From positions 62,001 through 126,000 of the forward strand of contig NZ_PDJD01000001.1 in the NCBI RefSeq assembly GCF_002563925.1: DNA of 64,000 nucleotides, written 5' to 3'. The position numbers and the translations under genes were made by a program. This DNA comes from Serinibacter salmoneus (GTDB lineage: Bacteria; Actinomycetota; Actinomycetes; Actinomycetales; Beutenbergiaceae). Position 1 is the stretch's first letter. Every line of letters begins with the position of its first letter. Below, piece by piece: positions 24,654 through 51,208 of this stretch. A model generated the notes under the pieces. The model worked only from the letters and a program-made list of their open reading frames with translations. It was not told the origin of the DNA and ran no database searches.

Positions 24654-24839
24654 ATGGGCCCCCGGACGTTCGTGCGGCGCTATAACGGGCTGCGCCTAGC
24701 CCCGGGTAGCCAAAGTACATGGAGATCACATCGCGCTTGAGCTCACTGGATCGATTATGGATCGTTTGGATGGTGCCACACTCCGGCCAGCTTCCAGGTG
24801 GCACTGCGCGGATCCCTGGCGCGCACTACCATGCTGCCC

Positions 24840-26081
24840 ATGGCGAGCAAAGACGTTCCAGAAGACTTCTTGCTGCAGTGGCGCCAGGCGAAGGCCGATG
24901 GCTCCGGGAGATTGGCTCTATCCGGTCCGAAGAGTTCGCATGGAGGGCGCACCGCAGGGGCGGCGGGCGACGGATTCTCGACGGATGGCGAAGAGCGCTA
25001 CTTCGCGGATGGCTGGGAGAGTCTCGATGAGGAGATCCCTCGCTTCAACCTCGCCGTCTTGGGAGATACGGGCTCGGGAAAGTCCAGCCTCGTGAACGCC
25101 ATCTTCGGTGAGATCAGGGCAGAGTCTGGCATCGGCGCCCCCGTCACCCAGTCGGTCAATGCGCACGACAACAAGGCCGGCACGCTCCGAGTGTACGACT
25201 TTCCAGGATTTGAGCTCGGATTCACCGGTCGTGATCCGATGAAAGTAATAAAGTCTGACCTGGGCAAGATCCAGAAGGGGCCGGAGGAGGGTCGCATCCA
25301 TCTCGCCTGGTTCTGTTGGGATCAAAGCGCTCGGCGCGTCCAGGAGCCACACGTCCAGGCGATCAACGAATTGCGCAAACGTGGCATCACGGTCATTGGG
25401 GTCGTGACCAAGGTTCGGGATGACGAGCAGCGCGAGATCCGTGAGTTTGGCCACTACATCCGAGAGGAGGTCAAAGGTCTGTGGTCGAACTCTGATGGTA
25501 AACCGACGGTCTGCTTCACGCGTGCCCTAGAGCCCACCGCTGGCCTAAAGAAACTGCTCGACGAGACTCGCTTGGCGGGTGGCGCGACGTTTCGAGATGC
25601 CATCGACGCAGCGCAGGTCTTGGACTGGGATGCGAAGAAGCGGGCCGCGCGCACTGTCGTCGTAGCCGCGGCTGCGACGGCGGCGAGTGCAGCTGCGGTT
25701 CCGGTTCCCGTGGCCACTGCAGCGTTTCTGGCGCCCGTGCAATTGGCTATGATGGGCAAGATTGCGCGGCTGATGGGCCTGAGTCTGGTTGGTGCCGTAG
25801 GTGGCAGTGGAGCGCTGGCACAGTTGGCGCTGCAGCTCACCGGACGAGCCGCCGCGCAAAGTCTCGTCAAACTTGTGCCAGGTGTGGGGTCTGTTGTAAA
25901 CGCTACGGTTGCGGCTGCGTGGACGTATGCCGCCGGCGAGGCGTGGATCTATCTATGTGTGGGGGTTGCAACCAAACGTATTGACCCGAGCCAGGTGGAA
26001 TCCGTCTACCGTTTCCTTTCGCCGATCATTTCCTTTATCTTCGAGTCCGTCCTGAAGGACTGGGGTAGCCGGGACCGTTAG
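24840..26081 (+). CDS. Era/dynamin-like GTPase with DUF697-type C-terminal domain
   Basis: About 413 aa. The G domain starts near residue 65: P-loop LGDTGSGKSSLVN near 70-82, switch I threonine in GAPVTQSV, G3 DFPGFE near 120, and G4 as GVVTKVRD near 183. After a linker, residues 275-395 form a hydrophobic alpha-helical region with QLAMMGKIARLMGLSL and LVKLVPGVGSVVNATVAA, as in DUF697 proteins that bind membranes. It probably hydrolyses GTP at the membrane face. ATG at 24840 is preferred: TACCAT (24827-24832) lies 7 nt upstream, a leaderless arrangement, and there is no Shine-Dalgarno site. It stands alone between scar DNA and the XRE/ADP-ribosylglycohydrolase module. GTPases of this class occur in defence islands, but the partner here is unknown. 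Confidence 0.8.
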   Translation: MASKDVPEDFLLQWRQAKADGSGRLALSGPKSSHGGRTAGAAGDGFSTDGEERYFADGWESLDEEIPRFNLAVLGDTGSGKSSLVNAIFGEIRAESGIGAPVTQSVNAHDNKAGTLRVYDFPGFELGFTGRDPMKVIKSDLGKIQKGPEEGRIHLAWFCWDQSARRVQEPHVQAINELRKRGITVIGVVTKVRDDEQREIREFGHYIREEVKGLWSNSDGKPTVCFTRALEPTAGLKKLLDETRLAGGATFRDAIDAAQVLDWDAKKRAARTVVVAAAATAASAAAVPVPVATAAFLAPVQLAMMGKIARLMGLSLVGAVGGSGALAQLALQLTGRAAAQSLVKLVPGVGSVVNATVAAAWTYAAGEAWIYLCVGVATKRIDPSQVESVYRFLSPIISFIFESVLKDWGSRDR

Positions 26082-26138: not shown

Positions 26139-26618
26139 CTACCGCCCACCCCGCCGCCGCGCCTCCTCTTGCGCGACCCCGGTGACGATGCGCAGCTGAA
26201 GGCGCGAGAGGGCCTCCAGGCGCACGGAGGCTGGTAGGGCCTCGAGGGCCTCGGCGGCGATGTCGATGGCCTCAGCGGTCGTCGGCCCTCGCTGCCGCAC
26301 GCCGTTGCGATCCGACTCCAGCGGCCGGTAGTCACGCTCCCGCTCCGGGCGCCGCCGCACATCCTGCCTCCGAGGCGGCTCAGCCTCTCCTGGCTCGTCG
26401 AACCCGAATAGCTCGTCCAGCGTGAGCCCGAGAGCGCGGGCGAGGGTGGCCTGGTGTCGGGAGGAGGGCAGGCGGTAGCCCGTCTCGATCTGTGCCACGT
26501 AGGGGTAGGAGAGGTCGGTCGCCTCCGCCAGGGCGCGACGCGAGAGTCCGAGTTCCTCGCGGCGCGCCACGATCCGTCGACCGACCTCGAGGTCTCCGGT
26601 CTTGGGTGAACCCGCCAT
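26139..26618 (-). CDS. XRE-family transcriptional regulator
   Basis: A 159-aa protein with a Cro/CI-type HTH at residues 12-68 (VGRRIVARREELGLSRRALA, then SYPYVAQIETGYRLPSSR). An Arg/Glu-rich linker leads to a helical tail (ALEALPASVRLEALSRLQLR) that may mediate dimerisation. ATG at 26618 follows GGAAGGAGG by 6 nt. It is divergent from the ADP-ribosylglycohydrolase gene, and the shared 158-nt region holds a perfect CTATGCG/CGCATAG palindrome plus a separate half site, so it most likely represses the module. Confidence 0.88.
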   Translation of the reverse strand: MAGSPKTGDLEVGRRIVARREELGLSRRALAEATDLSYPYVAQIETGYRLPSSRHQATLARALGLTLDELFGFDEPGEAEPPRRQDVRRRPERERDYRPLESDRNGVRQRGPTTAEAIDIAAEALEALPASVRLEALSRLQLRIVTGVAQEEARRRGGR

Positions 26619-26663
26619 CCGCGCCTCCTTCCCGCCGCCGTCACGTCCGATGTGAGGACCACC

Positions 26664-26670
26664 CTATGCG
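26664..26670 (+). promoter_or_regulatory. Operator half site CTATGCG near the XRE gene
   Basis: The same ACCCTATGCG context seen in the full palindrome at 26731 recurs here, close to the start of the XRE gene, so it may be a second, autoregulatory binding site. Confidence 0.45.
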
Positions 26671-26730
26671 CTCAGCGTCGCAAGGTGTTGCGCTCCGCAC
26701 AGCAGCGGTATACGTTCAGCATCAGTCACC

Positions 26731-26747
26731 CTATGCGTAGCGCATAG
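26731..26747. promoter_or_regulatory. Operator palindrome upstream of the ADP-ribosylglycohydrolase gene
   Basis: CTATGCG (26731-26737), a TAG spacer, and CGCATAG (26741-26747) form a perfect 7-bp inverted repeat 29 nt before the ATG at 26777. It is well placed to block RNA polymerase. The ribosome site GGAGG follows at 26766-26770. Confidence 0.65.
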
Positions 26748-26776
26748 ACTACAAGAAAAACTCACGGAGGCACCCG

Positions 26777-28246
26777 ATGACCCTGACACCGGCACAATTG
26801 GACCGAGCCTGTGGTGTTCTCATCGCCTCGGCCGCGGGCGACGCGCTCGGCGCGGGTTACGAGTTCGCGCACGTGACCCCGGACCTCGAGCCCACCATGA
26901 TCGGCGGCGGCCTCGGTGGGTTCGCCCCGGGGGAGTGGACCGATGACACCGCGCAGGCCGTCGCCATCGCCCAGGCGGCCGCCACCGGGGGCGACCTGCG
27001 CGAGACCGCGGTGCTGGACGCCGTCGCCCACGGTTTCGCACGCTGGTACGCGCAGGGCCCCCCGGATGTGGGGGTCCAGACCTCCGCCGTGCTCGGCCGC
27101 GCCGCTGCCGCAGCTGGGCCCGCCACCCCCGACGCCGCCACCATGACCCGCGCGGCCCAGGAGGTGCACGAGGCCCGCGGCCGTAGCGCCGGGAACGGCT
27201 CCCTGATGCGCACCGGCCCGGTCGCCCTCGCCTACCTCGACGACCCCGCGGCCCTCGCCCAGGCGGCCATGACGGTCAGCGGCCTGACCCACCACGAGGA
27301 CGACGCCCGCGAGGCGTGCGCACTCTGGTCACTCATGGTGCGCCACGCCGTCCTGCACGGCACCTTCCCCGTGTTCGAGGACGTCGCGCCCTGGCTGCCG
27401 CGCGCCGACCTGTGGCGCGCGAGGCTCGAGGAGGCGCAGCAGCGCCCGCCCGCGGCGTTCGCGCAGAACACCTGGTCGGTGGGCGCGCTGCAAGCGGCGT
27501 GGTCGGCGATCACGCACACCCCCGTCCCCGCCGAACCCTCCCGCCACCTGCAGGATGCGCTGACCACGGCGATCCGGATCGGGCGGGACACCGACACGGT
27601 CGCCGCCATCGCCGGCGCCCTCCTCGGCGCGCGCTGGGGCGCGAGCGCCGTGCCCGCCCGGTGGCGACGGATCCTGCACGGCTGGCCCGGCATCGACGAA
27701 CGTGAGTTGGAGCGCCTGGCGGTGCGGATCGTGACCGGTGGTCGCGGGGAGAAGTACGGCTGGCCGCTCGTGGACCACCTCGACTACCGGCCGCTGCAGT
27801 ACCGGCCGGCCCGCGCCGTCGTCCACCCGCACGACGACGGGGTGATCCTGGGCGCCGCCACGATCCTGGACGAGCTCCCGGCCCAGGTCGACGCTGTCGT
27901 CTCCCTGTGCCGGCTGGGTCGGCGTCAGGTGCCACCAGGCGTGGAGCACATCACCTTCCGGCTGCAGGACGAGAGCGACCCGGCGAGCAATCCGAACCTG
28001 GACGCGGTGCTGACCGATGCCGCCGAGACGATCGCGGACCTGCGGGCCCACGGTCAGCGTGTGTTCGTGCACTGCGTGGCGGCCTACTCCCGCACGCCCA
28101 CCGTGGCGATCGCCTACGCGATGCGCCGGGGCGTGCCGCTGGCCACGGCGTTCGACGACGTCTGCCGCGCCCTGCCCTACGCCCACCCCAACGAGGGGTT
28201 CCGGGCCGCACTGACCCGCTTGGAAGGGAGCCTCGCCAATGCCTGA
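26777..28246 (+). CDS. ADP-ribosylglycohydrolase fused to dual-specificity phosphatase
   Basis: A 489-aa two-domain enzyme. Residues 1-315 are an ADP-ribosylglycohydrolase of the DraG/ARH type with the metal-binding motifs intact: AAGDALG near 19-25, GEWTDDTAQ near 52-60, and DTDTVAAIAGALLG near 274-287. Residues 330-489 form a cysteine phosphatase with HCVAAYSRT near 431, the HCx5R active site. The first domain should remove ADP-ribose from targets or hydrolyse a related bond, and the second should hydrolyse a phosphate ester. Substrates are not known. It is controlled by the divergent XRE regulator and overlaps the next gene by 8 nt, so the two are cotranslated. The fusion suggests sequential processing of a phosphorylated ADP-ribose derivative (inference). 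Confidence 0.88.
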   Translation: MTLTPAQLDRACGVLIASAAGDALGAGYEFAHVTPDLEPTMIGGGLGGFAPGEWTDDTAQAVAIAQAAATGGDLRETAVLDAVAHGFARWYAQGPPDVGVQTSAVLGRAAAAAGPATPDAATMTRAAQEVHEARGRSAGNGSLMRTGPVALAYLDDPAALAQAAMTVSGLTHHEDDAREACALWSLMVRHAVLHGTFPVFEDVAPWLPRADLWRARLEEAQQRPPAAFAQNTWSVGALQAAWSAITHTPVPAEPSRHLQDALTTAIRIGRDTDTVAAIAGALLGARWGASAVPARWRRILHGWPGIDERELERLAVRIVTGGRGEKYGWPLVDHLDYRPLQYRPARAVVHPHDDGVILGAATILDELPAQVDAVVSLCRLGRRQVPPGVEHITFRLQDESDPASNPNLDAVLTDAAETIADLRAHGQRVFVHCVAAYSRTPTVAIAYAMRRGVPLATAFDDVCRALPYAHPNEGFRAALTRLEGSLANA

Positions 28247-29690
28247 CGTGGCCGGCCTGCGCGTGAAGCCGGGCGAACTGATGATGATGCACGACGACGA
28301 TCACGAGCCGGTCGGCCTGGTCGCCTGGACTCACCGGGGCCGGTTCTGGCGGCTCGGTGGCTTCTGGCAGCCGGTGCCCGCCGCGAGCGCGATGTTCTAC
28401 GGCCTCACCCTGCAGGTGGTGCACGAGGACTTCGTCGCGTTCTACGACGTCCTGGAGAAGACCGGCATGCTGCCCTCCCCGGCGCAGACTGGGGAATACG
28501 CGGTGCCCGACGGCGCAGGGCGGGGCCGGCCGGCACGCCCGCCCAGGCGGCCCTTCGGGTGGGCGGGACCGGCGGAGGATCGGGTGCGTGGACTGGTGCT
28601 CGGACTCCTGGTGGGGGAGGCGATCGGCAGCACGGAAGGGGGTGGTGCGGGCGGGTCCACCGCGGGCGGAGGTGCCCAGGGCCGCAAGGCCACGGCCAGC
28701 ACCGCCGGTCTCGGGCTGAGCGCCGCGGCGTTCCCGCTGCGGATCGCCGCGGGCGGGCAACTCGCGTTGGCTACCATCGACGGCTTGGTGCGCGCGGAGG
28801 CCTCCATGCACCAAGCCCTCCCACGCGATCAGGTGCAGAAGGTGGCGACCCGAGAGGTGATTCGCGCCTACCGGCGGTGGGCGCTGCGGCGCCAGGAGGC
28901 GCCCAGCCGTGGGGTGGCGAACTCCGGGTGGACGGGCCAGGTGCTGGCGCTGCGCGAGCGGCGAGGCTCTTCGCCGTCCACGGTGTACGCGATCCGCGCA
29001 GGCAAGCCGAGTACGTCGACCGGATGTCAGGCCCTGGTGCGTTCCCTGCCGTTCGCGGCGTGGAACCGCCCGGGCCCCGAGGCGCTCAAGGCGTCGTGCG
29101 CTTTCTCCCACGCCCCCGCAGCCGGGTACGCGGCGCAGGTGGCATGTGAGGTGTTGCGGGTAGCGCTGCGCTCGGACACCGTGGAGCGGGCCGTGGCGCG
29201 AGCTCACGAGCTGATCGGGAACCTCGCGATCCTCGCGCAGGTGCGGGAGGCGGCCGCCAGGCAGGTGCGCAGCACGGAGCGTCTCGCTGAGATGGCGCCC
29301 GATGCGAGCTCCTGGTCCGCGTTGCAGGGCGGTGTGTACGCGGCGCTGTCCTACCCGGGGCCGGACGAGGTTCTTCGGGCCTTGAGATTCGCCGCCACCG
29401 CACCGGACGGCGATTCGGTCGCGGCCGTGGCGGGCGCGTTGCTCGGCGCAGTCCACGGCGTCGCGGCGCTGCCCCGGCGCCTGCAGGATCACCTGCCCGT
29501 GGGCTGGGTTGCCGACACTCTGGCCCGCGATCTCGTGCGGCTCAACACCGCGGGCGGGATGAGCGTGATCGCGGAGGGCTCGGCGAGCGCCGCGGCCCGC
29601 CTCCGGCGGGCCTACCCCGCGGTGATCGCGAAGGCGGTACCCGCGCCGGGCACGGCCCCGGCTACTCCTCACCCGCCCCGAACTGCCTGA
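28239..29690 (+). CDS. Degenerate ADP-ribosylglycohydrolase-like protein
   Basis: A 483-aa paralogue-like partner of the preceding enzyme. Residues 1-90 form an extra N-terminal domain (PGELMMMHDDDHEPVGLVAW) with no named family. From about residue 115 the ARH fold can be followed, but the catalytic residues are replaced: GDALG becomes GEAIG (near 125), the WTDDTAQ region has lost its aspartates (LRIAAGGQLALATIDGL), and DTDTVAAIAG becomes DGDSVAAVAG. It is therefore probably a binding or regulatory subunit, not a hydrolase. ATG at 28239 lies inside the end of the upstream gene. Its 3' end lies in a 45-bp sequence repeated exactly at the end of the SIR2 gene. Confidence 0.78.
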   Translation: MPDVAGLRVKPGELMMMHDDDHEPVGLVAWTHRGRFWRLGGFWQPVPAASAMFYGLTLQVVHEDFVAFYDVLEKTGMLPSPAQTGEYAVPDGAGRGRPARPPRRPFGWAGPAEDRVRGLVLGLLVGEAIGSTEGGGAGGSTAGGGAQGRKATASTAGLGLSAAAFPLRIAAGGQLALATIDGLVRAEASMHQALPRDQVQKVATREVIRAYRRWALRRQEAPSRGVANSGWTGQVLALRERRGSSPSTVYAIRAGKPSTSTGCQALVRSLPFAAWNRPGPEALKASCAFSHAPAAGYAAQVACEVLRVALRSDTVERAVARAHELIGNLAILAQVREAAARQVRSTERLAEMAPDASSWSALQGGVYAALSYPGPDEVLRALRFAATAPDGDSVAAVAGALLGAVHGVAALPRRLQDHLPVGWVADTLARDLVRLNTAGGMSVIAEGSASAAARLRRAYPAVIAKAVPAPGTAPATPHPPRTA

Positions 29691-29789: not shown

Positions 29790-30956
29790 ATGCGTCCTAA
29801 ACCAGTCCAGAAGTCGCTGCAGAGCCGATCTGCTCCTGAGTCTCACGACTCGAAAGCGCTGGACCTCCGTGATCTGCACACTCCGATCACGCCGCGCGTG
29901 GCATACCTACTCGTGTTCGGCGCGGCCGCCTACGTCGTCTTGGGTGTGTTGTGGGTGGCTTGGGTGGACGGCGATCAGACAATGGCCGGGCTCGCCGAGC
30001 GGGTGCGTGCATGGTCTGGAGGCGGCGCGAAAGGCTTGGGTTCGCTTTCCTTCCTTGCTGTAGTGGCGACACTCGTGGTTGGTCTCTATGCGGCTGTAAT
30101 CGGGGCCCTCCCACGCACTAGTGACGAGGTGTTGGCGGGTAAGCGGATGCTTATTGTGGCCCTTGTTCTGGGTGCTGGGACGGTCTCGGTCGTGGTGCTT
30201 GTCAATATTGCGCAAGGTTGGAGCGGCGCCGAATCTCTCGTGGTGCTGCTGCTTGCGACTGTTGTAGGATCGCTGTGCGCGGAGGCGATGGCAAGGACCG
30301 TGAGCCAGAAGGTAAGTCCTGCGAATGCGGCGTGGCGTTGGCGGACGGAAATAAAGGTGCGTATTCGGCGCACGTTCCCTGCGCACTCCCGGCCGGCGCT
30401 GGTATTCGCGCGGATGGGTTACGCGCAGTCGCTGATTGCGGGGGGCGTCTGGCTAATCACTTTGTTTCTCGTGGCAATCGCCGCCGGTGCGGCCCTTGCT
30501 GCGATCGTTTCGCCCACTGGTGTTGAGGCAGCTGAGGTCGACGGCGCGCTGATGCTTGTATTCGCGTCACTGCTCGTAGGTCCGCTGGTGTATTGGCTGG
30601 TGTGCGCTGGGGTCATGTATGCAAGAAAGTGCGGCGTTTATGCTCTCCAGTGGATTGTCTTTGACTTTATCGCTGCGGTGGCATTCGCGTTTGCCTTATG
30701 GCAGATGAGCGTTGGTCTGGGGGTGTGCGTGGGGATCGGTGCACTAGTTGTCGCCGCTGCGGTGGGGTTTGGTTCATGGGTGGCGCCCAGGTTTGGTATG
30801 CGCCACGCCGTTCGGGCCAGCATTAGGAGCCAGTTGAAGCGCGATCTTGGCAAGGCTGAACGCGACCTTCGTGCCGCACTTGGGTATGTAGGTGATCCTT
30901 CGCGAGAAGTGCGCTCGAGGAGACGGCGAGTCCTGCCGTGGAGGACTGATCGCTAA
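29790..30956 (+). CDS. Polytopic membrane protein of unknown function, inserted between direct repeats
   Basis: A 388-aa protein with about eight predicted transmembrane helices: roughly residues 39-59, 88-107, 120-141, 149-168, 214-240, 252-278 and two more in 287-330. A basic linker lies between helices 4 and 5 and a basic C-terminal tail follows. No family is recognised. The coding sequence is visibly richer in A/T than the flanking genes. ATG at 29790 has no Shine-Dalgarno site; TAGCAT (29778-29783) is 6 nt upstream, suggesting a leaderless message. The gene is the only content of a segment bounded by perfect 45-bp direct repeats, so it appears to be an acquired cassette, possibly an effector or immunity component. 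Its stop is 8 nt from the stop of the convergent SIR2 gene. Confidence 0.78.
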   Translation: MRPKPVQKSLQSRSAPESHDSKALDLRDLHTPITPRVAYLLVFGAAAYVVLGVLWVAWVDGDQTMAGLAERVRAWSGGGAKGLGSLSFLAVVATLVVGLYAAVIGALPRTSDEVLAGKRMLIVALVLGAGTVSVVVLVNIAQGWSGAESLVVLLLATVVGSLCAEAMARTVSQKVSPANAAWRWRTEIKVRIRRTFPAHSRPALVFARMGYAQSLIAGGVWLITLFLVAIAAGAALAAIVSPTGVEAAEVDGALMLVFASLLVGPLVYWLVCAGVMYARKCGVYALQWIVFDFIAAVAFAFALWQMSVGLGVCVGIGALVVAAAVGFGSWVAPRFGMRHAVRASIRSQLKRDLGKAERDLRAALGYVGDPSREVRSRRRRVLPWRTDR

Positions 30957-30964
30957 CTGCGCGA

Positions 30965-31009
30965 CTACTCCTCACCCGCCCCGAACTGCCTGAGCGCGCG
31001 GGCCAGGGC
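30965..31009. repeat. 45-bp direct repeat, right copy
   Basis: Identical to 29662-29706. It begins exactly at the TAG stop (30965-30967, minus strand) of the macro-SIR2 gene and encodes that protein's C-terminal residues. Confidence 0.9.
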
Positions 31010-32647
31010 GGCCCACCCGTCGTGCGTGGCGCCCCGTGCCAGCGCCTCCTGGTACGCATCGCGCAGGGACTCCACGAGGTGGTCGTCCTCGACCTGGTAG
31101 CGGGCATCGAGCAGGTGGCTCGGTGCCCGCGCCGCGAACATCGCGACGGCGTCGAGGAAGATGGTCATGGAACGTGCCGCGGCGCGGCGAGCGTGTCCCG
31201 GCGAGGGCCCGCTTCCGCTCTCAGGAGCGCCGGCCTCGTCGTCGGTCCCCGCCATGACGACGGCGAACTGTCGTTGCCACAGCCGCTCGAATGCCCGATC
31301 GGGTCGCAGCGTGATGACGGTGCCGATGTCTGACTCCTCGGCGAATGTGCTGCCCTCCTCGGTCAACTGGCGTCGGAGCGTGGCCACCTCGTGGGCGAAC
31401 CGGATGAGGTTGTCATCGGTGAGCGAGGCGCCGACGACCAGGAGGTGCTTGGTCATCATCAGCGATTGGACCACAGAGCCGACGGGCTTCCAGCGGCTGT
31501 CGTAGGAGACGAAGGAGTTGCGCGTCAGCACGATGGAGTTCGGGTGATTCACGTCGCCGTGCATCTTCAGGAGCCAGGGTCCGGTCGCGGAGACGTCCTG
31601 CCAGGGCAGTACCGCAATTTCTCGGCGATCGCCGGTGCGCCCGGCGTTCTCCACCGCCCGCTCGTAGAGCCCGTCGTAGTTCGTGGTGACGGCGCTGGGG
31701 ATCTGCATCCCTGCGAGCAGGAGGTGGCTGAGGCTGGGGCGTTCCGCTCTGGAGATGATGTCAGCGACTCGCTCCCCGAGGGAGGGGCCGCCACGGTCGA
31801 CGGCGCGGCGAGCCTCGGCCTCGATGACCTCGCCCTGGTCGAGGGTCGGCAGGCGCTCGACTTCCTTCCACGTGAGATCCGAGTCCAGTCCCTTCAGGAG
31901 CTCCTGCAAGAGGCCACTCCAGCTCGGCAGGCCGGCGCCCATGCTGAGGCCCGCGCCGAAGAACAGTGCGACCTCGTGATTGGCGACCTTCGCGGCCAGG
32001 GACTGGGCCTGCGTGATCAGCCCCGGGCGGAGTCCGGCGAAGAGACGATGCTCCGCCAGCTGGGCGCGGCGCACGTGTTGCAGCACCGCGTAATCAGACG
32101 CCGAGGACGCCACGATCATCACGTCGACGCCGGTCTCTCTGACTGCGGCAGACAGGGACTGAACGAGCGATTCGGCGAGTCGGCCGCGGTCGTGTGCGTG
32201 CCCGGCCCGACCGGAGCCGAGCAGTGGCATCGCAATCACGGGCGCACCGAGCTTCGCCCTCCCGGCGGCCTTCCACAGGTCGTCGCCGGTGCGGGAGACG
32301 ATCTCGGCCACGGTGCGCGCGGCTATTTCGCCCACCTTGTCCGGCGTCCACCCGATGGAGTCGATGATCCAGGGCTGGGGATCACCAGGCGCGATGTCGA
32401 GGTCCAGTGGATCGACGGAGAATCGGCCCCAACCGACAGGCCGCAGCGTGGACCAGTCCTGGTCCGCGGGAACCCCCGCGGCTGACTTCCAGTGGTCGCC
32501 TACGGAGAACGGCGCGTCCGCCGGGATGACGACGGCCGTACTCGCTATCGCGTCCAGCCTCCCGTGCACGATGAACAGGTGGCCTTCGCCGGCGCGGTCG
32601 TCGCCACGGTGGTCGGAGCGGATGTCCTGCTCGGACTGGTGAGTCAT
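30965..32647 (-). CDS. Macro-like/SIR2-like NADase-type effector
   Basis: A 560-aa protein. Residues 20-205 resemble a macro/ADP-ribose-binding fold (FIVHGRLDAIASTAVVIPAD, then VIAMPLLGSGRAG). From about 225 there is a SIR2-like domain of the defence type: ALFFGAGLSMGAGLPSW near 225-241, TTNYDGLYERAVE near 318-330, MHGDVNHP near 361, and VVGASLTDDNLIRF near 402-415. SIR2 domains of this class deplete NAD+ in antiphage systems; here that is inferred, not shown. ATG at 32647 starts the conserved part, and an upstream frame extension is rejected. It lies 80 nt downstream of a retron-type reverse transcriptase on the same strand, so the two probably form an RT-plus-effector operon. Its 3' end is part of the 45-bp repeat. 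Confidence 0.85.
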   Translation of the reverse strand: MTHQSEQDIRSDHRGDDRAGEGHLFIVHGRLDAIASTAVVIPADAPFSVGDHWKSAAGVPADQDWSTLRPVGWGRFSVDPLDLDIAPGDPQPWIIDSIGWTPDKVGEIAARTVAEIVSRTGDDLWKAAGRAKLGAPVIAMPLLGSGRAGHAHDRGRLAESLVQSLSAAVRETGVDVMIVASSASDYAVLQHVRRAQLAEHRLFAGLRPGLITQAQSLAAKVANHEVALFFGAGLSMGAGLPSWSGLLQELLKGLDSDLTWKEVERLPTLDQGEVIEAEARRAVDRGGPSLGERVADIISRAERPSLSHLLLAGMQIPSAVTTNYDGLYERAVENAGRTGDRREIAVLPWQDVSATGPWLLKMHGDVNHPNSIVLTRNSFVSYDSRWKPVGSVVQSLMMTKHLLVVGASLTDDNLIRFAHEVATLRRQLTEEGSTFAEESDIGTVITLRPDRAFERLWQRQFAVVMAGTDDEAGAPESGSGPSPGHARRAAARSMTIFLDAVAMFAARAPSHLLDARYQVEDDHLVESLRDAYQEALARGATHDGWAALARALRQFGAGEE

Positions 32648-32727
32648 GTGCCGATTGTGCCGGGGTGCTCGATCGTTGTCCCTCCGGTGAGCCGCTCGAC
32701 GCCGACACGGGTTCGCTTCGGGGGGTC

Positions 32728-33816
32728 TCACACCGAGTAGTGCGTAGTTGCCGCGAGCCAACGCTCACGTGCAGGGACTCCCCAGTCGGGTTCGGCGTGC
32801 GTCGCGTGCGCGAGTCGGCCGTTCACGTGCGTCACGAGCGCGCCCGCGTTCTCGAAGCCCCAGTGATGGGCGTGCGGTTCCAGCCCGAACTCACTGACCC
32901 CTCGCGTGTGGAGTTCGAGTTCTCGCTTGTACTCCCTCGTCAGCCGGAGGTGGTGTCCGTCCACCAAGAGGCCGAGCACTTGTCGGCGCGCCCCGCGGCG
33001 CGCGACTGTGGTCTTCTTGTCGTTGAGGTGCATCCCCAGTCGTCCGAGTTCTCGGCGCACATGGGTGACCAAGCGGTCGGTGTCTGTGTGCGCTCGCGGC
33101 CGCCTGCTGGAGAAGTGCATGTCGTCGGAGTACCGGCTGTAGACCCACCGGTTGGCCTCCGCCCACTCGTACATACGTTGATCGAACTCACGCATCACGA
33201 GGTTGGAGAGCAAGCCACTGGTCGGTGCGCCCTGGGGGAGGAAGCCTTCTGGTGCATGGCCGAAGTAGTTGGCGCGCACCTTCTCGCAGCGCAGTGGCCA
33301 GCAGCGGCACTGGCGAGGATTGCAGAGCTGGATTGCTCCGGTCCTGCGCTGGTTCCAGGATAAGGGTGATGTCGACGGCGCTGTCACCAGGCGCGTGATC
33401 TGCGCAGCATCGAAGGAGTTGCGCGAGTGCGGACCGGGGAGCGCGCGGAATACGTGCCGCTCCGTGATGGAGTGGAAGAAGTTGCTGATGTCGAGCCGCA
33501 CGACGAGCTCCGCTCCGAGGTGGAGGCGGGCGCAGTCAACGATCGATCGGCCGCGGGCGTAGGCGAATGCGCGAGGGTGCGCCACATGGCCGGGGGTCCA
33601 CTCCGCGAGCAGGGCGCGTTGGAACGCCATGAGGTCGGCGTCGGGCTTGCGGATCTCTCGGGCTGCCGCTCTGATGCGGGGGACCGTCAGAACACGGTAG
33701 GGATCCACCTCGCGCCGGATGATTGCCCTCGTGCGTTCCGCGCCCAGGCCGGCGTCCCCGAGAAGACGGGCGAGTTTCAGCCCGAGTAGGAAGTCGCGTG
33801 GATCGGCCAACCACAC
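32728..33816 (-). CDS. Retron-type reverse transcriptase
   Basis: A 362-aa RT with all core motifs: RT1/2-like FAYARGRSIVDCARLH, motif A VVRLDISNFFHS near 107-118 (catalytic Asp), motif B LPQGAPTSGLLSN near 192-204, motif C YSDDM near 228-232 (two catalytic Asp), and a retron-like motif D/E region (LNDKKTTV, then RQVLGLLVDG). An unusual cysteine-rich insert (CNPRQCRCWPLRC near 161-173) lies between motifs A and B. The start is GTG at 33816, with GAGAGGTGA upstream. There is no maturase or endonuclease domain, so a group II intron protein is unlikely. It would reverse-transcribe a structured RNA, most likely encoded just upstream. It shares an intergenic region with the divergent SNF2 operon. 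Confidence 0.88.
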   Translation of the reverse strand: MWLADPRDFLLGLKLARLLGDAGLGAERTRAIIRREVDPYRVLTVPRIRAAAREIRKPDADLMAFQRALLAEWTPGHVAHPRAFAYARGRSIVDCARLHLGAELVVRLDISNFFHSITERHVFRALPGPHSRNSFDAAQITRLVTAPSTSPLSWNQRRTGAIQLCNPRQCRCWPLRCEKVRANYFGHAPEGFLPQGAPTSGLLSNLVMREFDQRMYEWAEANRWVYSRYSDDMHFSSRRPRAHTDTDRLVTHVRRELGRLGMHLNDKKTTVARRGARRQVLGLLVDGHHLRLTREYKRELELHTRGVSEFGLEPHAHHWGFENAGALVTHVNGRLAHATHAEPDWGVPARERWLAATTHYSV

Positions 33817-34033: not shown

Positions 34034-37000
34034 GTGAACCCGAGCACCACTGCAACGTCGCAGGTCAGCACGCCTGCCGACGCCTCACCCACGCATCAGC
34101 AAGCGGACCCCGCCCACAACGTCACGGCAACCTTCACCGCCGCCCCCGGCTCCACGGTCGAGGTGCGCGATGAGGAGTGGCTGGTGACCGCCGTCGAGCC
34201 CGGCGCCCCGGATCCGCAGACGCAAGAACCCACCTTCTTCGTCTCCGCGATCGGCCTGACGGGCATCACGAAGGACACCGAGGCGACGTTCTGGACTCAG
34301 CTCGACACGATCACGCAGTCCGATCCGCGCCACACCCGGGTGGTCGCGGACGGCAGCCCGGGTCACCGCAAGAGCCGCTTGTGGCTGGAGTCCATGCTGC
34401 GCAAGACCCCCGTCCCGGTGGGCGCCGAAGAACTCACCGTCTCCACCCAGGCCCTCGCCGACCCGCTGCCGTATCAGCATCAGGCGGTCCGTCAGGCGCT
34501 GGCCCCGGACAATCTGCGTCCGCGCATTCTCCTGGCAGACGCCGTGGGCCTGGGCAAGACCCTCGAGATCGGCATGATCCTCGCGGAACTCGTCCGCCGG
34601 GGCCGGGGTGACCGGATCCTCATCGTGACCCCGAAGCACGTGCTGGAGCAGATGCAGTTCGAACTGTGGACCCGGTTCGCGCTGCCGTTCGTGCGCCTGG
34701 ATTCCACGGGCATTCAGCGCATCCGGCAGAAGCTCCCGGCGAACCGCAACCCGTTCACCTACTTCAAGCGCGTGATCATCTCGATCGACACGTTGAAGTC
34801 GGACAAGTACGTGAACCACCTGCGCCGCCAGCAGTGGGACGCGGTCGTGATCGACGAATCGCACAACGTCACGAACGCCTCCAGCCAGAACAACCGGCTG
34901 GCCACCACCCTCGCGGAGCGCACCGATGCGCTGATCCTAGCCTCCGCCACCCCGCACAACGGCAAGGCCGAGTCCTTTGCGGAACTCGTCCGCATGCTCG
35001 AACCGAGCGCCGTCAGCCCCACCGGCGAGCTCGACGAGGATCAGGTGAAGCGCCTGATCATCCGCCGCCACCGGCACCACCCGGACGTCGCGGGCGTGGT
35101 GGGCGCGGACTGGGCGGAGCGGATGCCCCCGCACAACCTCCTCATCGACGCCTCCCCGGAGGAGAACGCAATCGCGGAGGAGTTGGAGCACACCTGGCTC
35201 TGGCCCGCGTCGGGCACCAACCCCTACTCGGGTTCCACCAAGGGCCTGTTCCCGTGGACCCTCGCGAAGGCGTTCCTCTCCAGTCCCGCGGCCCTGGCGG
35301 AGACCGTCAGGGAGCGCCGCAAGCGCCTCGCGAACCAGCCGACACCGAACCAACCGGCACCGAACCAACCGCCCACGAACGAGCAAGTCACCGACCAGGC
35401 CAAAGAACAACAAGCGCTCACCACTCTCGAGCACCTCGCCGAGCGCGCCGAGGCCGGCACCTCCGCCAAGTACGACGCCCTCCTGGCCCACCTCCGGACG
35501 ATCGGCGTCTCCAAGACCAGCCCCACCCGCGCCGTCGTGTTCGCCGAACGCCTCGCCACCCTGCACTGGCTGCGGGAGCGCCTGGCCCGTGACCTCAAAA
35601 TGACCACCGAGCAGGTCGCGGTCATGCACGGCGGGCTCACCGATGTGGATCAGCAGAAGATCGTGGAGAGCTTCAAGTTGGAGTCCTCCCCGATCCGCGT
35701 GCTCATCACGGGTGACGTCGCCTCCGAGGGCGTGAACCTGCACACCCAGTGCCATCACCTGATCCACTTCGACATCCCGTGGTCGCTGATCCGCATCGAG
35801 CAGCGCAACGGCCGCATCGACCGGTACGGGCAGAAGCACCGCCCGGTGATCACCACGCTCCTGCTGAACCCGAGCACGGAGCGGTTCGCGGGCGACATCC
35901 GCGTGCTGACCCGCCTGATGGAGCGCGAGGACGAGGCCCACCGCGCCCTCGGCGATTCCGCCTCCCTCATGGGCGAGTACGACGTGAAGGCGGAGGAGGA
36001 CTCGATCCGCCAGGTGTTGTCGGGCACCAAGCAACTCGACGACGTGGTGCACTCGGTCGAGGAGGTCCGGACCGCGGGTGGCCCCACGGGCATGCTGGCG
36101 CGCCTCATGGCGAAGCGCGCCGCTCCCGCGAAGCCCTCCGAGGAACCAGCGCAGCCCAACCAGTCCCGTCCCGCCACCGCAAGCGGGCTGTACGACGGCG
36201 AACTGGACTTCCTGAGTGACGCTCTCGCCGAGGCGCTGGTCACCCCGGAGAAGGACGTGCCGAACGGCGTCGCCTGGCAGACCCACCCGGGCCACGGCAT
36301 CGCCCAGCTCGACGTCTCCGGCGCCCAGACGAAGGATCTGCGCCAGCGTCTGGAGGTGCTGCCGCAGTCCTACCTCGCCGACCGCAAGGTCACCCGCACC
36401 TTCAAGCTCGCGACCACGGCGGTGGCGGGCAAGCGTGAGATCGCCCAGGCCCGCAGCAACGAGTCGACCTCGCTGTGGCCCGAGGCGCACTACCTCTCCC
36501 CGTTGCACCCGCTGCTGGAGTGGGCGGCGGACCGCAGCCTCGCGGCCCTGGGCCGCGGCCGCGTGTACGTGGTGCGCGGCGACGTGGCCGACCCCTCCGT
36601 CCTGCTGCAGGGCACCCTGACGAACGCCCGCGGTCAGGTCATCGCCACCTCCTACACGCATGTGCTGTTCCCGGGCGCCCCGAGCGTGCGCCCCGCGTTC
36701 GCGCAGCCGTTCGCCACGGCCGCCGAGGCGGTGGCGGCCCTGCGTCTGGCGGAGGTGAACACCGGCGGGGTGCCGGGCGCCGCCGCCTGGGGTGCGCTCA
36801 TTCCCGTGGCCGTGGACGAGGCACAGGCCATGATCGGGAACCAGGTCGCGGCCATCGAGGCAGCCACCCGGGACCGCATCGAGGCGTGGCGCGCCCGCTC
36901 CTCCCGCTGGCAGCAGCAGGCCGCCCGGGAGACCCAGCGCTCCACGGTGAGGCAGCGCACCGCGATGGTGGCCGCGGAGGAGGACCTCGCGGCGTCGATG

Positions 37001-37141
37001 AACCCGGAGCGCACCCTCATCCGCCCGCTGTTGGTGGTGGTGCCGCCCGGTGACCTGAGTGACCTGACCCCGGGTGACCTGCCCCCCGGCGATCTGACCC
37101 CCGGCGATCAGACCCCCGCGAGTGAGAACGGAGCCCTGTGA
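34034..37141 (+). CDS. SNF2-family helicase, DrmD-like
   Basis: A 1,035-aa SF2 ATPase. Walker A LADAVGLGKTLE near 167-178, Walker B VVIDESHN near 272-279, motif III ASATPHNGK near 300, and a C-terminal helicase lobe near 555-600 (GDVASEGVNLH and IEQRNGRIDRYGQ). A proline/asparagine repeat linker (about 435-455) and a C-terminal PGDL repeat tail are present. It resembles the SNF2 protein that leads class 1 DISARM operons. GTG at 34034 begins the operon, and its TGA overlaps the ATG of the methylase gene. It probably translocates on dsDNA in a defence complex with the next three genes; this is inference from gene order. Confidence 0.85.
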   Translation: MNPSTTATSQVSTPADASPTHQQADPAHNVTATFTAAPGSTVEVRDEEWLVTAVEPGAPDPQTQEPTFFVSAIGLTGITKDTEATFWTQLDTITQSDPRHTRVVADGSPGHRKSRLWLESMLRKTPVPVGAEELTVSTQALADPLPYQHQAVRQALAPDNLRPRILLADAVGLGKTLEIGMILAELVRRGRGDRILIVTPKHVLEQMQFELWTRFALPFVRLDSTGIQRIRQKLPANRNPFTYFKRVIISIDTLKSDKYVNHLRRQQWDAVVIDESHNVTNASSQNNRLATTLAERTDALILASATPHNGKAESFAELVRMLEPSAVSPTGELDEDQVKRLIIRRHRHHPDVAGVVGADWAERMPPHNLLIDASPEENAIAEELEHTWLWPASGTNPYSGSTKGLFPWTLAKAFLSSPAALAETVRERRKRLANQPTPNQPAPNQPPTNEQVTDQAKEQQALTTLEHLAERAEAGTSAKYDALLAHLRTIGVSKTSPTRAVVFAERLATLHWLRERLARDLKMTTEQVAVMHGGLTDVDQQKIVESFKLESSPIRVLITGDVASEGVNLHTQCHHLIHFDIPWSLIRIEQRNGRIDRYGQKHRPVITTLLLNPSTERFAGDIRVLTRLMEREDEAHRALGDSASLMGEYDVKAEEDSIRQVLSGTKQLDDVVHSVEEVRTAGGPTGMLARLMAKRAAPAKPSEEPAQPNQSRPATASGLYDGELDFLSDALAEALVTPEKDVPNGVAWQTHPGHGIAQLDVSGAQTKDLRQRLEVLPQSYLADRKVTRTFKLATTAVAGKREIAQARSNESTSLWPEAHYLSPLHPLLEWAADRSLAALGRGRVYVVRGDVADPSVLLQGTLTNARGQVIATSYTHVLFPGAPSVRPAFAQPFATAAEAVAALRLAEVNTGGVPGAAAWGALIPVAVDEAQAMIGNQVAAIEAATRDRIEAWRARSSRWQQQAARETQRSTVRQRTAMVAAEEDLAASMNPERTLIRPLLVVVPPGDLSDLTPGDLPPGDLTPGDQTPASENGAL

Positions 37142-40100
37142 TGGTCGCGAGCGATGCGATCACCGTTGGTGAGGACTGGATCAGCGAGCACTACCTGACC
37201 TCGGACGCCAAGGGCACCTTCCGCGCGAAGGTGCTGGAGCGCCGCAAGGAGTGGGACGCCACCGCGAAGGAGGGCCGCGAGACTCCGCGCACCCGGTTCC
37301 TGCGCGTGCGGCAGGACCTGTTGCGTACCTTCGCGGGCCTCGCGGAGTTGACGGACGCCGACGACGGCGCCACCGCAGCCACCGCCACCACCGCCCACTC
37401 CACCACCACCGCGCAACCCCATGAGGCCCCCAGCGAGGCCCTCAGAATCGCCCTGGATGCCCTGGACGCCACCCTCCTGCGCGCCCTGGGGTATGAGGCG
37501 TTCGGCTACGAGCCCCACCGCGAGGGCCCCGTGCTGCGCATCAACTCCCCGGGCCTGACCACCGGCGCCCCGCTCGCGATCATCTCCGCGACCACGGACC
37601 CCACCGGCGCCAAGGACCCCGAGTACCTGCTCTCCCGCAAGGGCTACACGCTGCGCAGGCCGTACGTCACCGAGGACGGCGAGGAGATCACCTCCGCCGC
37701 CCGGCTGCTCTCGCACCTGTTCGTGGCGGAGGACGGCCCCACCTTCGCCCTCGTGCTCGCGGGCCCGCTCGCGCTGATCACGGAGGCCACCCGATGGGCG
37801 GAGGGCCGCTACCTGGTGATCGACCTGCAGGTGGTCACCGAACGCGCCGAGGACGCCCGCGGCGGTGAGACCGACCGCGCCCTGACGTGCCTGGCGGCGC
37901 AGTCCCTCGCCCCGGACGCCGAGGGCAGCATCTGGTGGTCGAGCGTGCTGGAGGAGTCCGTCAAGCACACCGTGGGTGTCTCGCAGGATCTGCGCGACGG
38001 CGTGCGGGAGTCCATCGAGATCATCGCCAATGAGGTGGTCGCCCGTCGCCGCGCCCAGGGCCTGGAGCCGCTGCCCGCCGATCAGGCGCAGCCCCTGGCC
38101 CGCCAGTCGCTGCGGTTCCTGTACCGGATCCTGTTCCTGCTGTACGCGGAGGCCTCCCCGGAACTGGGGGTGCTGCCTACGGGGGAGGATGCCTACGAGC
38201 GCGGCTACAGCCTGGACCGGCTGCGGGAACTCACCCTGGTGGAGCTCGCCGATCAGGCCGACCTCAGCGGCACGCACCTGTACGACTCGCTGGCCGTGCT
38301 CTTCCGCCTCGTGGATCAAGGCACGGCTGATCAAGGCACTGCTGATCAGGGCACAGCCGACCAGGGCACTGCTCATCAAGGCACAGCCGACCAGGCCGTT
38401 CCGGAAGCGGACACCGCTGAGGACGACGGCGCTCCCCACCTCCCGGCGCTGATCTTCCGCTCCCTGCGGGCCGACCTGTTCCTCCCGCGCGCTACCGCCC
38501 ACATCGATGCGGTGGGCCTCGGCAACGGCGCCCTGCAGCAGGTGCTGGGCCGCCTGCTGCTCTCGAAGGAGTCCCGCGGTAAGGAACGCGGGTTCATCTC
38601 TTACGCGGAACTCGGCATCAACCAACTCGGTGCGGTGTACGAGGGGTTGATGAGTTACACGGGGTTCTTCGCTACCGAGGAGTTGTACGAGGTGGCCAAG
38701 GGGGGCGACGGCGAGAAGGGCTCCTGGGTGGTGCCCGTCACCCGTGCCGAGGGCATCAGCCCGAACGACTTCGTGCGGCGCGCCGATCCGGTCACGGGGG
38801 AGCGGACCCCGGTGGTGCACGAGCGGGGCGCGTTCGTGTTCCGGCTCTCGGGGCGGGAGCGGCAGCAGTCCGCCTCCTACTACACCCCCGAGGTGCTGAC
38901 CCGCTTCACGGTGTCGCAGGCGCTCGCCGAACTGCTCGATCAGCCCGACGAGCACGGCAACGAGCACGTCACCACGGCGCGGGAGATCCTCGACCTCACG
39001 GTCTGCGAGCCGGCGCTGGGGTCGGGGGCATTCGCCATCGAGGCGGTGCGGCAGCTCGCCACCGAGTACCTGCGCCGACGCCAGCACGAGACCGGCCGGA
39101 AGATCGACCCGGATGCCTACCCCCGGGAACTGCAGAAGGCGAAGGCCTACCTCGCCCTGCACCAGACCTACGGGGTGGACCTGAACGAGACCGCGGTGGA
39201 GTTCGCGGAGATCTCGCTGTGGTTGGACACCATGAGCGAGGGCCTGGCGGCGCCCTGGTTCGGGCTGCACCTGCGCCGCGGCAACAGCCTCATCGGCGCC
39301 CGGCACGCGTTCTACGGCAAGCACCAGTTGGCGAAGAAGGCCTGGCTGAGCGCCGTGCCGACCGACGCACCGCTCACCGGCGGCTTCGGTTCCGGCGGCC
39401 GCATCCACCACTTCCTGCTCCCCGCCGCTGGCTGGGGCAGCGCCACGGAGGCCAAGGAAGCGAAGACCCTCGCCCCCGAGTCCCACCAGCGGCTCAAGGC
39501 GTGGCGCCGGCAGATCACCGCGGTGCCCACCAAGCAGCAGACGGCGAAGCTGGTCGGGCTCGCGCATCGGGTGGAGGCGCTGTGGGACATCGCGCACCGG
39601 CGCCTGCAGATCGCCGAGCAGCAGGTCCGGCGCGACATCGGCCTCTGGGGCGCGCAGGACCTGCCCGTCGGCGGCGAGGTGACCCGCGAGCAGATCGAGG
39701 AGGCCCTCGCGGATCCCGCGGGTGCCTTCCAGCGACTGCGGCTGGTGATGGACGCCTGGTGCGCGCTCTGGTTCTGGCCGGTCGTACCGGACAATGACGG
39801 GCGCGACGACGCCGCTCACCCGGTCCAGCCGCCCACCCTGGAGGAGTGGCTGGCGGGGCTCACCGCGCTGCTCGGCGTGCACGTGGAGGCCAAGGGCGGC
39901 ACGGAGTTCCTGTACTCCAGCGCCACGTGGGAGGAGCTCGGTCACGAGGAGATCAACGATCGCACCTTCACCGGGGCCCTCTCCACCGACGACGCGGTCG
40001 CCCAGCACGCCTGGCTCGGGGAGGTGCAGCGCATCGCGGGCGGGCAGGGCTTCTTCCACTGGGAGCTGGATTTTGCGCCGGTGTTCGCCGGCCGCGGCGG

Positions 40101-42090: not shown

Positions 42091-42170
42091 CGCATGCGGG
42101 ATCGGTCGGCGTGGGGCAGACTGCCCCTCATGGGGGCAAAGTCGCCGAACACCGCTGAATCCGCATGCGC
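42090..42170. promoter_or_regulatory. Intercistronic inverted repeat with nested hairpin
   Basis: GCGCATGCGG (42090-42099) and CCGCATGCGC (42161-42170) are perfect 10-bp complements. Between them GGGGCA (42113-42118) and TGCCCC (42122-42127) form a tight hairpin. This is the only real gap in an operon whose other junctions overlap, so it may tune expression of the downstream genes. Confidence 0.55.
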
Positions 42171-42202
42171 GCCACTCGTGCTGACGGCAGGTGGGTGCGC
42201 GC

Positions 42203-51141: not shown

Positions 51142-51208
51142 TCAAACGCTATATTTGTTGTGTGTTGCCGGTTTGGTAGCAGTAGGCGAGCAAGGGGGCG
51201 GTGCCAGG

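What the first reader, a model, noticed from the sequence alone, without database searches (positions are those of the whole stretch)
26139..29690. XRE-controlled pair: ARH-phosphatase fusion plus catalytically dead ARH paralogue
An ADP-ribosylglycohydrolase with intact metal motifs is fused to an HCx5R phosphatase and overlaps by 8 nt with a second ARH-like protein whose catalytic aspartates are gone. A divergent XRE repressor with palindromic operator controls them. Active enzyme plus pseudoenzyme under tight control recalls toxin-antitoxin or defence modules acting on ADP-ribosylated, perhaps phosphorylated, targets. It lies beside a macro-SIR2 gene, another ADP-ribose/NAD function.
Basis: partly seen in the sequence, partly recalled or inferred. 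Interest (0 to 1): 0.6.

Follow-up and report, generated by a model that had tools for sequence, protein, structure and literature searches.

The report
ADP-ribose eraser with inactive twin
A bacterial enzyme, probably built to remove ADP-ribose tags during conflicts with phages or toxins, is paired with a look-alike that has lost part of its catalytic centre and lies near a likely NAD-destroying defence gene; the enzyme belongs to a predicted but untested immune family, while the partner and the repeated link to the defence gene look like a new variant.

Summary
The cassette is real. Gene 1 (26777-28246) is an ADP-ribosylglycohydrolase (ARH) fused to a dual-specificity phosphatase, with both active sites intact. 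Gene 2 (28239-29690), overlapping it by 8 nt, is an ARH-fold paralogue that lost the first metal motif but keeps D-G-D-S in the second. A divergent XRE gene flanks an operator, CTATGCG-N3-CGCATAG, unique in the 3.27-Mb genome and conserved in two relatives.

Gene 1 belongs to a published predicted conflict family (ARG plus rhodanese-phosphatase; PMC9503650), common in Actinobacteria, often beside NrtR-like, ARPP-1 and TY-Chap genes. The pseudo-ARH partner is a minority variant: beside gene 1 in 5 of 30 order-sample loci (window included; two not intact) and fused in one reading frame in 4 of 80 named loci (4 of 6 Streptomyces). It recurs in separate clades. A macro-SIR2 gene recurs too: 15 of 80 named loci, all within 4 kb, and 7 of 9 sampled genomes holding both.

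Toxin-antitoxin is not supported. Most likely this is a de-ADP-ribosylation cassette whose pseudo-ARH binds or presents ADP-ribosylated substrate, perhaps wired to the SIR2 NADase. That wiring is inferred. A new variant of a known predicted kind.

The parts
26139..26618 (-). XRE-family repressor (159 aa), divergent from gene 1
   Evidence: Pfam HTH_3 E 5.1e-12; relatives in the same divergent position in G006 (59% over 1-156) and G005 (78% over 1-72); in G005 the conserved C-terminal end lies in another frame, so that copy looks frame-shifted after its HTH
26731..26747 (.). Operator palindrome CTATGCG-TAG-CGCATAG, about 30 bp before the gene 1 start
   Evidence: Unique in the 3.27-Mb genome; conserved in G005 and G006, with a second, similar palindrome on the XRE side in G006. 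A lone half-site CTATGCG lies at 26664-26670
26777..28246 (+). Gene 1: ADP-ribosylglycohydrolase (residues 13-295) fused to DSP-type phosphatase (residues 396-481)
   Evidence: Pfam; catalytic residues conserved; PDB profile matches: 6dre, Thermus ARH, DraG and ARH3 for the ARH part, DUSP structures for the tail
28239..29690 (+). Gene 2: pseudo-ARH (about residues 112-450) with an unassigned N-terminal stretch of about 112 aa
   Evidence: Pfam E 9.1e-16; TDD motif absent; PDB profile match to ARHs E 1.7e-13; AlphaFold2 model pLDDT 70.5, pTM 0.70, Foldseek best ARH3 TM 0.70 by target length (the alignment included active ARHs)
30965..32761 (-). Macro-SIR2 gene, convergent with the cassette (likely ATG start at 32647); possible linked effector
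   Evidence: SIR2_2 E 2e-21; PADLOC ThsA SIR2 E 6.5e-30; PDB ThsA E 1.8e-17; macro domain by family profile, macroH2A1.1 E 3e-7; recurrent near gene-1 homologues

Best explanation
The cassette is a variant of the predicted ARG-centric conflict systems: an inducible eraser of ADP-ribosylation. The XRE protein represses both divergent genes through the operator at 26731-26747. When a phage or toxin ADP-ribosylates host molecules, repression is lifted; gene 1 removes the ADP-ribose with its ARH domain, and its phosphatase tail removes the phosphate that is exposed or released (for example ADP-ribose on a phosphate end, or an ADP-ribose phosphate). Gene 2 keeps the ARH fold but lacks the first half of the metal site, so it most likely binds without efficient hydrolysis: a non-catalytic subunit that recognises ADP-ribosylated substrate or holds it for gene 1, in a complex with it. 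The nearby macro-SIR2 NADase may be the second line, killing or arresting the cell if the ADP-ribose signal persists. Shown here: gene content, motifs, conserved operator, natural fusions of the active ARH with the pseudo-ARH, recurrent macro-SIR2 proximity. Inferred: inducer, substrate, complex formation, role of gene 2, link to the SIR2 effector.
For: Domain content and motifs. Operator unique in its genome and conserved in three genomes. Among the 80 named gene-1 homologues kept, an NrtR-like gene cluster occurs in 34 loci, ARPP-1 in 14, macro-SIR2 in 11 (families read from one member each), matching the published description for the first two. Pseudo-ARH fused in one ORF in 4 of 80 named loci, and adjacent on the same strand in 5 of 30 order-sample loci, of which G163 is a fragment and G111 is split over two frames; fused without detected phosphatase in G579. 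Ten pseudo-ARH-bearing rows need 7 changes on the 108-row gene-1 tree, at least 5 forced by starred branches. Macro-SIR2: 19 of 396 genomes, 9 of those also carry a gene-1 phosphatase-tail match, 7 of 9 with matches under 3 kb apart; 15 of 80 named loci, all 15 within 4 kb against 7.2 expected (1 of 20,000 simulations as high); 22 labelled rows need 17 changes, at least 12 forced. Gene 2 evolves faster than gene 1 (pN/pS 0.79 against 0.41, window against G005) but stays open.
Against: Gene 2 is absent beside most homologues, including G006, the relative with the same XRE, operator and macro-SIR2, and 2 of the 6 named Streptomyces loci (L132, L137). Both labels are more clustered on the tree than shuffles (pseudo-ARH 7 against 9.7, SIR2 17 against 20.4), so shared descent explains part of the recurrence. 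Solo pseudo-ARHs exist: G602 and G545 with no gene-1 match in the 14 kb fetched, G188 and G084 with ordinary genes among the neighbours scanned, two each. Window gene 2 keeps D-G-D-S, so residual metal binding or altered activity is possible. Macro-SIR2 is convergent here with a gene in between, not one operon; G376 and G111 carry the ARH pair without it nearby, and the SIR2 gene beside the pair in G005 shows no macro match. The window has an XRE regulator, not the Nudix or WYL sensor of the published systems. No complex structure and no biochemistry; the gene 2 model from pseudo-ARHs alone failed (pLDDT 37).
Confidence: 0.5

Rival explanations
1. The macro-SIR2 protein is the toxic NADase or ADP-ribosylating effector of a single module, and the ARH-phosphatase plus pseudo-ARH is its restraint: the ARH erases the mark or signal that triggers or is made by SIR2, and the pseudo-ARH senses or blocks it.
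For: Recurrent proximity across the gene-1 tree; SIR2 most like ThsA NADases; a macro domain, an ADP-ribose-binding fold, is fused to it. The published systems were sought for lacking a coupled ART or sirtuin, so this subset departs from that premise.
Against: 65 of 80 named loci show no SIR2 match in the fetched flanks, some of which are short; 10 of 19 macro-SIR2 genomes have no match to the gene-1 phosphatase tail, so each seems to work without the other; orientation varies between convergent, divergent and tandem; defence genes cluster anyway, and no matched island control was run.
Confidence: 0.25
2. Toxin-antitoxin pair: gene 1 acts on a modified host target, gene 2 neutralises it, XRE autoregulates.
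For: Tight overlap, divergent XRE, autoregulatory-looking operator.
Against: Gene 1 homologues usually lack gene 2, which a toxin could hardly afford; the active part is an ADP-ribose eraser fold; the partner can be fused in the same polypeptide.
Confidence: 0.08
3. Housekeeping or NAD-metabolism role: gene 1 recycles free ADP-ribose phosphates or reverses endogenous ADP-ribosylation; gene 2 is a relic or scaffold.
For: Frequent NrtR-like (Nudix-winged-helix) regulators beside homologues; a characterised ARH removes ADP-ribose from phosphate ends of RNA (PMC11833690, abstract and passages seen).
Against: Patchy distribution: 41 of 396 genomes with a match to the phosphatase tail; no NAD-salvage family among the 25 most frequent neighbour families shown on each side; defence-type neighbours; island location with DISARM-like genes.
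Confidence: 0.12
4. Gene 2 is merely a decaying duplicate without function.
For: pN/pS 0.79; broken or fragmentary copies in G163, G111 and the second G376 copy.
Against: Intact and alignable in window, G005 and four Streptomyces fusions with shared conserved residues; present in separate clades of the gene-1 tree.
Confidence: 0.1

Closest known systems
ARG-centric anti-ADP-ribosylation conflict systems (Viruses 2022, PMC9503650; section 3.8 read in full; author names in part recalled)
   Same: ARG domain plus rhodanese-phosphatase-superfamily phosphatase; relatives carry NrtR-like regulators, ARPP-1, TY-Chap, vWA and helicase neighbours as described
   Different: Window has XRE instead of a Nudix or WYL regulator, no ARPP or TY-Chap among the neighbours scanned, an added pseudo-ARH, and a macro-SIR2 neighbour; the section read does not mention an inactive ARG, and the systems were sought by absence of coupled sirtuins or ARTs. 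Its Figure 7 and supplements were not seen
Tri1 immunity protein (ADP-ribosylarginine hydrolase) and DraG
   Same: Same ARH family as gene 1; best NCBIfam matches and among the best PDB matches (that 6dre is Tri1 is recalled). Recalled, not checked: Tri1 also protects by occluding its toxin, a precedent for a non-catalytic ARH role
   Different: Far below both curated cut-offs (95.9 of 490 and 85.1 of 337 bits); no toxin gene of that kind was looked for
Thoeris ThsA and other SIR2 NADase effectors
   Same: The nearby protein has a ThsA-like SIR2 domain and a divergent macro domain
   Different: No TIR match among the window proteins scanned; near an ARH cassette and beside a reverse transcriptase
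Human ARH3
   Same: Best Foldseek match of the gene 2 model, TM 0.70 by target length
   Different: 16% identity; first metal motif absent in gene 2

Membership tests
ARG-centric conflict system | ARG (ARH) domain with catalytic residues | tested here: met
ARG-centric conflict system | Coupled phosphatase, usually rhodanese-phosphatase superfamily (a little over 55% in the paper) | tested here: met
   DSPc domain with HCx5R
ARG-centric conflict system | Nudix- or WYL-sensor repressor (over 42% in the paper, so not obligatory) | tested here: not met
   Window has XRE; NrtR-like clusters in 34 of 80 relatives
ARG-centric conflict system | No coupled ART or sirtuin (the search premise of the paper) | tested here: inconclusive
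   macro-SIR2 lies 1.3 kb from gene 2 and recurs near homologues, but whether it is coupled is not shown
ARG-centric conflict system | Accessory chaperone or ARPP gene (optional) | tested here: not met
   No Pfam match to these in the 12 window proteins scanned; present near relatives
ARG-centric conflict system | Protection against viral or toxin ADP-ribosylation | not testable with these tools
   Needs an experiment; only a prediction in the paper
Type II toxin-antitoxin | Obligatory two-gene partnership | tested here: not met
   Gene 2 beside or fused to gene-1 homologues in 5 of 30 and 4 of 80 loci
Type II toxin-antitoxin | Autoregulated operator | tested here: inconclusive
   Conserved unique palindrome; binding not tested
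Type II toxin-antitoxin | Toxicity relieved by partner | not testable with these tools
   Needs expression tests
Thoeris | ThsA-like SIR2 effector plus TIR (ThsB) gene | tested here: not met
   SIR2 present, no TIR match among the scanned window proteins
Tri1 / DraG equivalogs | NCBIfam curated cut-off | tested here: not met
   95.9 of 490 and 85.1 of 337 bits

The most novel reading that the evidence does not exclude
An eraser-reader-executioner circuit: an ADP-ribosylhydrolase-phosphatase, a catalytically lapsed ARH that reads ADP-ribosylated molecules, and a macro-SIR2 NADase that fires when the mark or the free ADP-ribose signal is not cleared. The pseudo-ARH would be a repeatedly recruited ADP-ribose reader class, and the SIR2 coupling would make these systems abortive-infection switches rather than simple repair.
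Probability: 0.22. Interest if true: 0.72.

Novelty: new variant of a known kind. Interest (0 to 1): 0.45.

Why it matters
Bacterial counters to ADP-ribosylation by phages are predicted in PMC9503650 but were not tested there. Here a compact, locally regulated cassette offers a testable unit, with natural fusions that suggest which parts touch. If the pseudo-ARH reads ADP-ribose marks, it would be a non-catalytic reader built on the ARH fold; the recurrent macro-SIR2 neighbour would connect eraser systems to NAD-depleting immunity.

Tried and rejected
Literature: six searches of the open-licence library; several lists were capped (15 of 334 papers shown, 12 of 20). PMC9503650 is the only paper in which I saw ARG-phosphatase systems described. 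No listed title or abstract start reported a pseudo-ARH partner or the macro-SIR2 link, but apart from PMC9503650 and passages of PMC11833690 no text was opened, so absence from print is not shown. A recalled DOI for a rhodanese-phosphatase paper was not held.

Structure: gene 2 with only four Streptomyces pseudo-ARH segments failed (pLDDT 37); adding 43 active ARH rows gave pLDDT 70.5, so that model supports the fold but cannot speak to the lapsed site. The N-terminal ~112 aa stayed at low confidence (10-residue blocks of 33-62) and was not assigned. A search of predicted viral structures added only phage and giant-virus ARHs at E up to 0.001.

NAD salvage was my first guess for the NrtR-like neighbours; the Pfam scans showed ARPP-1 and SIR2 instead. 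Phage relatives of gene 1: 13 records, matched over the ARH part only, none covering 80% of the query. Gene 2 in plasmids: 1 of 72,556 records, partial match. The about-1e-50 hits are another ARH family, some with and some without TDD, and were not counted as partners. L082 (G013) was in alignment A5 but has TDDT, so it was left out of A7 and used as an outgroup only. In genus g23 an ARH-DSP-like and a gene-2-like gene share a contig roughly 11-28 kb apart in several genomes; not treated as pairs.

The 30 order-sample loci (L035-L064, window included) are those returned for 41 genomes with a match; the other loci were not checked for a partner, and L063 and L064 are weak, distant members. Genome searches scored only the best few candidates per genome (4, 8, 3 and 5), so misses are possible. 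Genes were called by a home-made codon caller; neighbour families were named from single members. The two samples may share species, so their counts are not added. The tree kept 108 of 111 rows: L044, L059 and L126 were dropped for short ARH matches. That saw the same 396 genomes is taken from shared handles.
Full report
What is there. The window (62001-126000 of a 3.27-Mb single-contig genome) holds gene 1 at 26777-28246, gene 2 at 28239-29690 and a divergent XRE gene at 26139-26618. Gene 1 is an ADP-ribosylglycohydrolase joined to a DSP-type phosphatase; gene 2 is an ARH relative with an unassigned N-terminal stretch. Across gene 1 and 80 named relatives the ARH aspartates D56 and D57 and the TH motif are invariant (81 of 81), D271 and D273 near-invariant (80 of 81), and the phosphatase cysteine and arginine of HCx5R are present in 77 and 76 of 81; 4 of 81 rows lack the phosphatase part. 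Gene 2 lacks the first metal motif (TDD) but keeps the histidine of the TH motif (as SH) and, in the window and the Streptomyces copies, D-G-D-S at the second motif; G005, G188 and G084 have lost that too. 'Pseudoenzyme' is therefore likely, not proven.

Regulation. The intergenic region holds CTATGCG-TAG-CGCATAG at 26731-26747, the only match to CTATGCGNNNCGCATAG in the genome. The two relatives with a related XRE gene and gene 1 in the same arrangement (G005, G006) carry the same 7-3-7 palindrome in the same place, and G006 has a second, similar palindrome on the XRE side. In G005 the conserved C-terminal end of the XRE protein lies in another frame, so that copy looks frame-shifted after its HTH. 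This is good evidence for a dedicated local repressor in the window and G006.

Family and context. A scan of named genomes kept the best 80 of at least 546 gene-1 relatives, mostly Actinobacteria (Nocardioides, Mycobacterium and relatives, Cryobacterium, Arthrobacter, Streptomyces, Gordonia and others). Neighbour clustering gave an NrtR-like gene in 34 of 80 loci (27 members within 1.5 kb), ARPP-1 in 14 and macro-SIR2 in 11 (identities from one member each). A Pfam scan of 79 immediate upstream and 72 downstream neighbours agreed: NrtR_WHD 16 of 79, ARPP-1 9 of 79, TY-Chap1 3 of 79, XRE-type HTH_31 3 of 79; SIR2_2 most frequent downstream, 5 of 72, and 1 of 79 upstream. This is the kind of system that PMC9503650 predicted as a counter to viral ADP-ribosylation (section 3.8 read in full; passages). 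The ARH-phosphatase fusion is therefore known; that section reports a prediction, not a test.

The partner. With a profile of the pseudo-ARH clade, a partner adjacent to gene 1 is seen in 5 of 30 order-sample loci: the window, G005, G376 (shortened at its N-terminus), G111 (split over two frames) and G163 (a fragment). In 4 of 80 named loci, all Streptomyces (4 of the 6 Streptomyces in the set), it is fused in one reading frame as ARH-phosphatase-pseudoARH. G579 has ARH and pseudo-ARH fused with no phosphatase domain detected. G376 has a second, broken copy of the pair. On the gene-1 tree of 108 rows the 10 partner-bearing rows need 7 changes, at least 5 forced by starred branches; shuffled labels need 9.7 on average, and 1 of 500 shuffles was as low. 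So the trait is partly inherited within clades and has also been gained or lost several times. Gene 2 diverges faster than gene 1 (44% against 76% identity, pN/pS 0.79 against 0.41, window against G005). Solo pseudo-ARHs also exist: G602 and G545 without a gene-1 match in 14 kb, and G188 and G084 with ordinary genes among two scanned neighbours each.

Macro-SIR2. The gene at 30965-32761 has a ThsA-like SIR2 domain and a macro domain recognised by family profile (macroH2A1.1, E 3e-7; single-sequence matches are weak). In the order sample 19 of 396 genomes have a relative (E up to 1e-15), 9 of them also have a match to the gene-1 phosphatase tail, and in 7 of these 9 (G000, G005, G006, G163, G192, G211, G379) the matches lie less than 3 kb apart; G111 and G376 are the exceptions. 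In G005 the SIR2 gene shows no macro match. In the named set 15 of 80 loci have a SIR2 match, 8 of them with a macro match too, all 15 within 4 kb of gene 1 although up to 10 kb of flank was held; placement at random gives 7.2, and 1 of 20,000 simulations reached 15. The label needs 17 changes on the tree, at least 12 forced, against 20.4 for shuffles. Defence genes cluster in islands and I ran no matched island control, so the null is not perfect; repeated close proximity is still hard to dismiss. It departs from the premise on which the published ARG systems were sought, the absence of a coupled sirtuin.

Mechanism. Shown: domains, motifs, operator, fusions, co-location. Inferred: XRE is relieved during attack; gene 1 removes ADP-ribose and its tail removes phosphate; gene 2 binds ADP-ribosylated substrate without turning it over; macro-SIR2 is the fallback. 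A characterised Streptomyces ARH removes ADP-ribose from RNA phosphate ends (PMC11833690, abstract and passages), which makes a hydrolase-phosphatase relay on phosphate-linked ADP-ribose plausible. Toxin-antitoxin is unlikely because gene 1 mostly occurs without gene 2.

Verdict. In its core a real and ordinary member of a predicted conflict family, with two features worth following: a recurrent, fast-evolving pseudo-ARH partner and a recurrent macro-SIR2 neighbour.

Noticed in passing
window 32728-33816 (-): A reverse transcriptase gene next to macro-SIR2: PADLOC RT_III-A E 3.2e-89; NCBIfam retron St85 family 175.8 bits, below its cut-off of 235. Apart from the window's own copy no relative was found in the loci held; possibly a retron-like unit using macro-SIR2 as effector.
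   Followed up: partly
window 34034-52996 (+): DISARM-like island: DrmD-like SNF2 helicase, type IIG/DrmMI-like methylase, a 2215-aa DEAD plus MrfA-Zn-binding protein, UvrD helicase, KAP NTPase.
   Followed up: no
window 24798-26081 (+): GTPase with weak dynamin- and LeoA-like matches just before the XRE gene.
   Followed up: no
window 29790-30956 (+): 388-aa ORF, apparently membrane-spanning by eye, with no Pfam or NCBIfam match, between gene 2 and macro-SIR2.
   Followed up: no
L006:2303-3070, L074:9456-10373, L076:4618-5394: One protein cluster near gene-1 homologues in three genomes; the L074 member is N-formylglutamate-amidohydrolase-like by Pfam.
   Followed up: no
L190 against L195, L199, L206: A separate solo ARH family keeps TDDT in some members and has THLT or THHT in others, so loss of the first ARH metal motif has probably happened more than once.
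   Followed up: no
L006:7844-9829 (-): In G005 the SIR2 gene beside the pair matches the SIR2 part but not the macro part, and the short ORFs behind it look like transposase remains by eye.
   Followed up: no
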